The notes beneath the pieces were generated by a model, which worked only from the letters and a program-made list of their open reading frames with translations, was not told the DNA's origin and did not search any database. Shown in pieces: positions 6,101-9,100 of a DNA stretch of 64,000 nt. The stretch is from positions 19,289,501 to 19,353,500 of the forward strand of contig NC_088303.1 of NCBI RefSeq assembly GCF_032854445.1. Direction: 5' to 3'. Each line of letters opens with the position of its first letter. Position 1 is the first letter of the stretch. Source of the stretch: Liolophura sinensis. Taxonomy: Eukaryota; Mollusca; Polyplacophora; Chitonida; Chitonidae. A program made the position numbers and the translations under genes.

Positions 6101-9100
6101 ACAACTGAAGGCTGCAAAACTATGCCTTCTCAACAAATAAATACTTTGCTGAAGTGACCAAAATTGTTCAAAATTTTAGAGAAAATGCCAGTAGTTCTTA
6201 TTAATATTATGAGTTATAATTCTAAAGCATTTTCTTGCTCTCCAGGCTGAAGCCTTATTTATTTATTTTCTTTATTTTAACTCTTTCATTAGTCTATTCT
6301 TCCCTAAATTTAAAACTCTAACATTTAAGGAGTATTTATGTATCTCAGGGGAAAAATACACGTCATGTACCAAACTACCAAACATTCAACCATCCTTAAC
6401 ACATTGTGCCTAATTACTGGGTAAAAGAATATACTAAAACAAACAATAACCCCGTTGAAAGGCAAGTTCAGTCCAAAGGACACAATTACTGGTATCACAC
6501 AATATCCAAGCACTAGTGTACATGTGCTTTTGTCCAGATGCTAACCTAGACTTTGCTACATCTTGGCATTCCAAGCCCACAATGAATGAATATCAGATAT
6601 TCAGAAGTTGAAATATTTTCAAATGTAGATGTTCTAATCACTGACCACTAATGTGGAGTTAAATCATAATCACTCATTCACCCAAAATTCTTGAAATGTT
6701 TAAATGAAACTAAACACTACATGTACAAACGTATACATGCAATACAGGCACATTTAAAAGATACATCAGCTTGGAAGACCATGCAACAAGCCACACGTGT
6801 ATGTGCCAAATCATATAAAATATATCCAAAAATTTGTTCTCTTGAACATATCTTGATAATATCCACTCTGATGAAATCAAGTCGTTTCTGAGCTGTGAGC
6901 CAGTTTAACAATCTAAAAGAAAAGTATCCTTGAGTAATAATTACACTGACATTCTGTTAGACGAATCTAAATACTGAGAGATGTGTGAATATGTGCACTT
7001 CATTTTCAGAGATTTAGACCACAGATTTCGTTCCTGTTACACTACCCTTCTGACATGATAATGCCAGAATCTGTACGTCTATCTATTTCTTCAATGCAGC
7101 TGAAAACAGGTAAACATGCACGTTTGTCAGGCACGTTCAGCAGCAGGGCCTAGACGTCATTTAATTCACATCAGATTTCCTTCCCAGTTCATCATGATGT
7201 CCCAATACAGACAGTATGATATTTCAGTAGAAACTGATACATTGTTACACTGCTGACGTTCACTACAAACCATTTTTGACTCAACAGTGGCTCAAGGTTC
7301 ACAGTTAGTGCCACCTTACAATACAGGCTTAAAACAAAAATCTGCCTCCATATTTAAATTTGGTGATCATAACTCACATGAAGGACTATACAGATACACA
7401 TTCTGTATATGGGTACTTAAACATGTGGTCATCACTCACCCCTATGTCTTGGCACTACAACGGCACTATAAAAGACAGCAAACTTTGATAAGCAGCCTTA
7501 CCATTTGACAGAGCCTGTTGTAGCTCATGGCATGAAATAGAGCCACTGCGGTCGTTGTCAATCCTAGTGGAATAAAAAGATAATTAACAGGTCTTTTCAA
7601 CCAGACAAATAAAACATATCGCTCTCATCTACCATCAGCATGCCTGTCTAAACACAAATCAGTCATCAAAAGGCTGTTTGTACTGATCACTGTTCTAGTG
7701 TTCCTAATAACTTCAAAATCCCGAGGTCTTTTGAACACAGAATTTAGCCAATTTGAATTTCTGAGATTTTTTTTTCGGCTGACATTGGCCAATCTACTAG
7801 CCAACACAGTTTATCTCAAATAAAAAGATTACAAAAAAAAGAGGCCATGTATCTGTGGTCAATTTTCGAATTTAATAGCACCAGGTCCTCATCACTTGAG
7901 CAATGGCAGATTTTGACACATGTACATTAAATAGTTTTTGAAACTAAAGACAGCCAAAAAAACACACTTGTGAACATCTACAAACTGTGAAACCTACAAA
8001 CAGCCTTGAAAGTGACATTACTCGGGTGACTACAGGCAGAGCTACAAGTGACACTACTGGGCCATGCTGTGGACATGCGAGCAATACCTACATCACTGCA
8101 TTGTAGAATACAGACTTACCATTGGACAAGGCATCCTGGAGCTCTTTCCATGTGATCTGACCACTCCGGTCTCGGTCAACTCTAAATGGAGCCAGAGATA
8201 TATTGGTAGAAAAGTGCAACTACTGTTTGTATCCATGACAATTACATGAAGGATCATGAGAGGAGGATTGGAGAGGGACAAGTATAGGTTGAATAGCTAC
8301 AGTAACTGCAACAAAATATGTTCCTAACATTGATAGATTATGTTCCCGCCATTTAATCCACCACAGACTACATAAAAGTCAGCAGGTTTGTCAGGCACAG
8401 TGCACCTGGTAAAGGTGTAGCACATGTACGTGTTATGCCAGCCAGCCTATGTTCAGCCATATACCTTACACCTTTTCTTCACACATGTATCATGTCGTTT
8501 GATAATTAGTTATTGATGCTGTCCTCAGTGTTTAAAATGTTTAAGTCAATGACGCTGGATTCCTTGTTTTCAGTCACCATATTTTGGAAAATTGGAGTGG
8601 GTGGCAGAAAAATTTCCATTTTTATTACCATTTCTTCAGCTACATTTTAATTCTAATGTAAGTACCTTTTGTAACAATTTCTGTCGCTACATTATATAAT
8701 CAGTTCTGATGAGGGGACTAATATGATAGGACCGGAATTACTGTATCAACTGTGATTTGCCATTCGCTTGTAACCCGCCGAATTGCTTTGATTTTAATTC
8801 TCAATAAATACAATTCACAGCAGCAGTGTAGAATAAAGCAACAATCACAGTGGTCCCATACATCATGGCTATCTGAGTGATATAATCATATGTACATGAA
8901 ACTGATAGATGTTACAGTTTGATTTCTTCCTTACATTATTTCGCAATACCAACTACAATGGATATGAGAATGTTTACTTAGGTCCCGCAGAGTAGGTCTA
9001 CGGGTGTGCACAGTACGTTTTGTCATAACAGATAACATTCGTAAAGCGTGCAACAAGACAGGTGGATTTGTTGAAAACAGAATAATTACATGCCATGAAG

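What the first reader, a model, noticed from the sequence alone, without database searches (positions are those of the whole stretch)
7502..8181. Two frame-locked, mutually exclusive exons for EF-hand 1 of PDCD6/ALG-2
Seen directly: two 62-nt exons (8181-8120 and 7563-7502), each flanked by good AG/GT sites, each entering and leaving with one base, each encoding a complete EF1 loop with all ligands and ending ALSN-G. Thirteen of 20 codons encode the same residue. Since 62 is not a multiple of 3, using both or neither shifts the frame, so only one can be used. EF1 is a calcium-binding hand of ALG-2. The differing residues ([11 protein letters not shown] versus [11 protein letters not shown]) could tune calcium affinity or partner binding. 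I know of no description of such switching in PDCD6.
Basis: partly seen in the sequence, partly recalled or inferred. Interest (0 to 1): 0.82.

Follow-up and report, generated by a model that had tools for sequence, protein, structure and literature searches.

The report
Duplicated calcium-loop exon in chiton ALG-2
A chiton gene for the calcium sensor ALG-2 (PDCD6) carries two alternative versions of the small exon that encodes its first calcium-binding loop, so the animal can probably make two forms of the sensor with slightly different calcium responses; it is a credible new case of a known kind of gene-splicing arrangement, not yet confirmed with RNA.

Summary
The minus strand carries one six-exon PDCD6/ALG-2 gene (about 9213-3148) with two 62-nt versions of exon 2, at 8181-8120 and 7563-7502. 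Both have AG/GT sites, identical phase and a complete EF1 loop. Either copy alone gives an intact 188-aa ALG-2. Using both, or neither, frameshifts to a stop 278-298 nt before the last junction. No third copy exists in the gene, and the locus is single in the genome, which matches the published Liolophura chiton assembly. The copies differ at 21 of 60 codon bases, mostly silently (pS 0.69, pN 0.25). All five shared fourfold sites differ, and flanking introns retain no similarity. Each copy has diverged from human ALG-2 as much as the rest of the protein. A copy dead since duplication would not look like this, so both were probably under selection. Mutually exclusive use is the best reading, but neither RNA nor a relative's genome was available. 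No dedicated exclusion device was found. Both hands keep all ligands and nearly all pocket-3 residues, so tuning of EF1 calcium response is likelier than a partner switch. New member of a known kind; closest precedent: alpha-actinin exons 19a/19b.

The parts
9125..9213 (-). PDCD6 exon 1 coding part ([29 protein letters not shown] + AG), donor AAG|gtatac
   Evidence: genome hit to residues 1-31
8120..8181 (-). Exon 2a, 62 nt, EF1 loop and exiting helix: [20 protein letters not shown]; tttag|A ... ATG|gtaagt
7564..8119 (-). 556-nt intron between the two alternative exons; no third copy, no stem beyond chance, GC 0.38
7502..7563 (-). Exon 2b, 62 nt, EF1 loop and exiting helix: [20 protein letters not shown]; actag|G ... 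ATG|gtaagg
5978..6022 (-). Exon 3, 45 nt ([14 protein letters not shown]), EF1-EF2 linker
5473..5631 (-). Exon 4, 159 nt, EF2 and EF3
4514..4623 (-). Exon 5, 110 nt, EF4 region
3148..3249 (-). Exon 6 coding part, EF5 and stop

Best explanation
The chiton PDCD6/ALG-2 gene has an old tandem duplication of exon 2, and the two copies are used as mutually exclusive exons, giving two ALG-2 isoforms that differ only in the EF1 calcium loop and its exiting helix. Shown: both copies exist, are splice-competent in sequence and phase, are frame-locked, are intact, and differ mostly at silent sites. Inferred: both are expressed; choice is made by trans-acting splicing factors, with joint or zero inclusion removed by frameshift and nonsense-mediated decay, because no steric block, distant branch point, U2/U12 clash or strong RNA pairing was found. 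Inferred: because both keep all side-chain ligands and nearly all Pocket 3 residues but differ at loop positions 2, 7, 9, 10 and 11 (R/N, Q/S, T/S, W/C, K/H), the swap changes EF1 calcium affinity or kinetics, and hence the calcium threshold for ALG-2 partner binding, rather than switching EF1 off or changing the pocket. The confidence given is for both copies being working alternative exons; the calcium-tuning step alone deserves about 0.45.
For: Exact structure and frame logic. Exclusive similarity to EF1 over shuffles, no third copy. 21/60 differences with pS 0.69 versus pN 0.25, dS about 1.9, bootstrap fraction with pS<=pN 0.006; all 5 shared fourfold sites differ; neutral placement of 21 changes keeps >=13 residues without a stop in 0.05% of trials. 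A copy evolving neutrally at d=0.4 stays intact and this similar in about 0.05% of trials, at 0.93 in none of 20,000. 2a and 2b match human ALG-2 at 14/20 and 15/20, against 105/151 for the rest of the protein. Flanking introns show no similarity. Single locus in the genome, so no haplotype or recent-copy artefact. Both isoforms score alike against ALG-2 structures, 291 and 295 bits. Stops at codon 84 (both) and 36 (neither), 278 and 298 nt before the last junction. EF1 ligand mutant E47A abolishes both Sec31A and ALIX binding in human ALG-2 (PMC4346919), so EF1 occupancy gates both.
Against: No transcript, junction read or peptide was seen. No other chiton or mollusc genome could be searched. 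The exon is only 20 codons, so dN/dS is imprecise. A copy that lost function recently (neutral distance of about 0.1 or less) could still look intact (17% at d=0.1). No sequence device enforcing exclusivity was found.
Confidence: 0.78

Rival explanations
1. One exon is the working exon 2 and the other is a duplicate that recently lost use and is not spliced in, although it still looks intact.
For: Intact sequence alone cannot exclude recent loss: at neutral distance 0.1 about 17% of copies would still be open with sites and ligands intact. No RNA was available.
Against: Both copies carry near-saturated silent divergence with the EF-hand, frame and splice sites kept; both have diverged from human at the gene's normal rate; at d=0.2 only about 3% of dead copies stay this intact. 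Loss would have to be late in the copy's history.
Confidence: 0.12
2. Both exons are used, but mainly as a productive/unproductive switch: joint inclusion or skipping gives NMD substrates that lower ALG-2 level, and isoform difference in the protein is secondary.
For: Joint and zero inclusion both create stops well upstream of the last junction; the 556-nt intervening intron is long enough to be spliced and no exclusion device was found. MXE-joining reads are known in frame-incompatible clusters (PMC5740500).
Against: A poison exon need not keep an EF-hand; both copies keep the coding sequence under apparent purifying selection.
Confidence: 0.07
3. The pair is a chance match or an assembly artefact.
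For: None found.
Against: Score 104/103 against at most 23 in shuffles; the copies differ at 21 of 60 codon bases with unrelated introns and the locus is found once.
Confidence: 0.01

Closest known systems
Alpha-actinin (ACTN1/ACTN4) exons 19a/19b, mutually exclusive EF-hand 1 exons
   Same: Tandem duplicated exon inside the first EF-hand of a calcium-regulated protein; rest of protein unchanged (PMC4435478, PMC9741552).
   Different: In actinin one copy loses calcium binding and a brain form includes both exons; here both copies keep all ligands and joint inclusion would frameshift. Different protein family.
OGDH exons 4a/4b
   Same: Mutually exclusive exons that set calcium sensitivity of the product (PMC7969005, PMC9177970).
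   Different: Exclusion there is enforced by distant branch points and one form is calcium-insensitive; here AG exclusion zones are ordinary (36 and 27 nt).
ALG-2 delta-GF122 isoform of mammalian PDCD6
   Same: Alternative splicing of the same gene that changes calcium affinity and partner choice (PMC5037681, PMC2927601).
   Different: Uses an alternative donor at exon 4 that removes two residues near EF3; not a duplicated exon and not EF1.
Frame-incompatible MXE clusters (human MXE atlas)
   Same: Similar length, phase and sequence, with joint inclusion leading to frameshift and NMD (PMC5740500).
   Different: PDCD6 is not mentioned in the main text of that atlas (its supplements were not searched).

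Membership tests
Mutually exclusive exon (MXE) cluster | Neighbouring internal exons of similar length, same phase and recognisable sequence similarity | tested here: met
   62 and 62 nt, identical phase, 13/20 residues
Mutually exclusive exon (MXE) cluster | Splice-site compatibility with shared flanking exons | tested here: met
   GT-AG on both; either copy joins exons 1 and 3 in frame
Mutually exclusive exon (MXE) cluster | Joint inclusion not productive | tested here: met
   Frameshift and stop at codon 84, 278 nt before last junction
Mutually exclusive exon (MXE) cluster | Each exon present in transcripts without the other | not testable with these tools
   No RNA-seq access
PDCD6/ALG-2 (penta-EF-hand group I) | Closest solved relative is PDCD6 across the penta-EF domain | tested here: met
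   E 4e-86 to ALG-2 against 6e-37 to sorcin; isoform B likewise
PDCD6/ALG-2 (penta-EF-hand group I) | Six exons as in human PDCD6 | tested here: met
   Six exon positions plus the duplicate; human count from PMC2927601
Actinin-type calcium on/off EF1 switch | One of the two exons lacks calcium ligands | tested here: not met
   Loop positions 1, 3, 5, 12 are D, D, S, E in both
RNA-pairing-controlled MXE (docking/selector) | Complementary intronic elements beyond chance | tested here: inconclusive
   Best stem in the intervening intron is within shuffles (35% reach it); inverted 9-mers 47 against 34.5, 6% of shuffles; no relatives to test conservation
Distant-branch-point or steric MXE | Long AG exclusion zone or too-short intervening intron | tested here: not met
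   AGEZ 36 and 27 nt; intron 556 nt

The most novel reading that the evidence does not exclude
A regulated EF1 swap gives ALG-2 two calcium thresholds in chitons (perhaps across molluscs), letting one gene serve two calcium regimes in ESCRT repair or COPII traffic, by a frame-locked exon pair of ancient origin.
Probability: 0.4. Interest if true: 0.6.

Novelty: new member of a known kind. Interest (0 to 1): 0.42.

Why it matters
ALG-2 links calcium to ESCRT membrane repair and COPII traffic, and EF1 occupancy is needed for partner binding. A natural exon swap confined to EF1 would offer a ready pair of variants with which to measure how EF1 sets the sensor's calcium threshold. It also adds a separate protein family to the few EF-hand proteins in which splicing alters a calcium loop.

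Tried and rejected
Viral contig scan for PDCD6 relatives found none. A third exon 2 copy was sought on both strands and not found. RNA stems in the intervening intron and inverted repeats across introns 1-3 were within or near shuffled expectation, so a docking/selector claim was dropped. The retrocopy idea (a fossil transcript showing which exon is used) failed: no processed PDCD6 copy appeared in the genome searches. The two other penta-EF genes compared (C1 and C3 loci) were checked for EF1 exon duplication within 5 kb: none. Structure prediction was not run because the spliced proteins are not contiguous in the window.

Full report
The window lies in a 609,464,459-base genome of 632 contigs. 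Contig number, approximate size and longest contig (96,433,062 bases) match the published chiton assembly GCA_032854445.1, first named Liolophura japonica and later corrected to L. sinensis (PMC11068029, PMC12441733).

The minus strand carries a complete PDCD6/ALG-2 gene. Six exon positions with GT-AG introns give an intact 188-residue protein when either copy of exon 2 is used. Its best solved relatives are mouse and human ALG-2 (E about 1e-86), far ahead of sorcin. It is the only PDCD6 locus found in the genome; the other close matches are penta-EF genes on C1 and C3. The C1 gene has a Gly/Pro/Tyr-rich N-terminal exon and looks peflin-like.

Using both shifts the frame and stops at codon 84; using neither stops at codon 36. 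Both stops lie more than 270 nt before the last junction, so such mRNAs should be targets of nonsense-mediated decay if the usual rule holds. Against an EF1 scoring set the two exons reach 104 and 103; the next AG..GT candidate of that length in the gene scores -1, and shuffled sequence never exceeds 23. There is no third copy.

The copies are old and appear to have been kept by selection. They differ at 21 of 60 codon bases: 7, 2 and 12 at positions 1, 2 and 3. All five shared fourfold sites differ; pS is 0.69 and pN 0.25 (dS about 1.9, dN about 0.31), with a bootstrap fraction of 0.006 for no difference. With 20 codons the numbers are rough but the direction is clear. Introns around the copies show no similarity beyond chance. 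Each copy matches human ALG-2 at 14 and 15 of 20 positions, the same level as the rest of the protein (105/151), so neither shows decay. Simulated dead copies keep an open frame, splice dinucleotides, EF ligands and 13/20 residues in about 3% of cases at neutral distance 0.2, about 0.05% at 0.4 and never at 0.93, which is half of dS. A very recent loss of one copy cannot be excluded.

What the swap would do. Human numbering places the exon at residues 35-54. The side-chain ligand positions 1, 3, 5 and 12 are D, D, S and E in both. Differences fall at loop positions 2 (R/N), 7 (Q/S), 9 (T/S), 10 (W/C) and 11 (K/H), plus V/I before the loop and D/Q in the exiting helix. Pocket 3, which holds the Sec31A motif, uses V35, L48, A51, L52 and S53 from this exon (PMC4346919); all are the same in both copies except V35, Ile in 2b. 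The human EF1 mutant E47A loses both Sec31A and ALIX binding (same paper). It follows, as inference, that changing EF1 affinity or kinetics would shift the calcium threshold for these partners, while the pocket itself is little changed.

How exclusion might work. The intervening intron is 556 nt, AG exclusion zones are ordinary (36 and 27 nt) and all sites look U2-type, so steric block, distant branch points and spliceosome incompatibility have no support. The best stem in the intervening intron is reached by 35% of shuffles, and inverted repeats across the region are at most marginally enriched. That leaves trans-acting choice, with frameshift/NMD as the filter, an arrangement documented in human MXE clusters (PMC5740500).

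Comparison. The arrangement is a tandem-duplicated, frame-locked exon pair, a known kind. The nearest precedent is alpha-actinin exons 19a/19b in EF-hand 1, but there one copy loses calcium binding (PMC4435478, PMC9741552), which is not the case here. The known ALG-2 splice variant, delta-GF122, is a donor-site choice at exon 4. Searches of open-access papers found no EF1 exon switching in PDCD6; subscription papers and database annotation of other molluscs were not searchable.

Verdict: real, both copies apparently maintained, and probably a working mutually exclusive pair; expression, mutual exclusion and function remain to be shown.

Noticed in passing
G000:C1:19950478-19952177 (L018) and G000:C3:17326896-17329433 (L019): Two further penta-EF-hand genes. 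In both, one exon runs through the EF1 loop and the EF1-EF2 linker, where PDCD6 has an intron between its exons 2 and 3. In the C1 gene an intron lies just before the EF1 loop, as in PDCD6; the C3 exon also contains the residues before the loop.
   Followed up: partly
window 3890-4030, 4920-5100, 5160-5400: Repeated short stretches ending in variants of 'cttgagtacggcgtaaaacaccaatcaaataaataaat' in PDCD6 introns; look like a dispersed SINE-like repeat.
   Followed up: no
window 52526-53030: A long minisatellite-like tract open in several frames (repeats of VWYGMSVYGM / HTIPYTDIPY), a repeat artefact rather than a gene.
   Followed up: no
window 57891-59528 +: 545-aa open frame with a weak match to the N4BP1 KH domain (below Pfam's cut-off) and ending in [10 protein letters not shown], which resembles the start of a NYN-type nuclease domain; probably an N4BP1-like gene exon.
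   Followed up: partly
window 21087-21578 -: Open frame with a weak tetratricopeptide-repeat match (below Pfam's cut-off); probably part of a neighbouring TPR gene.
   Followed up: partly
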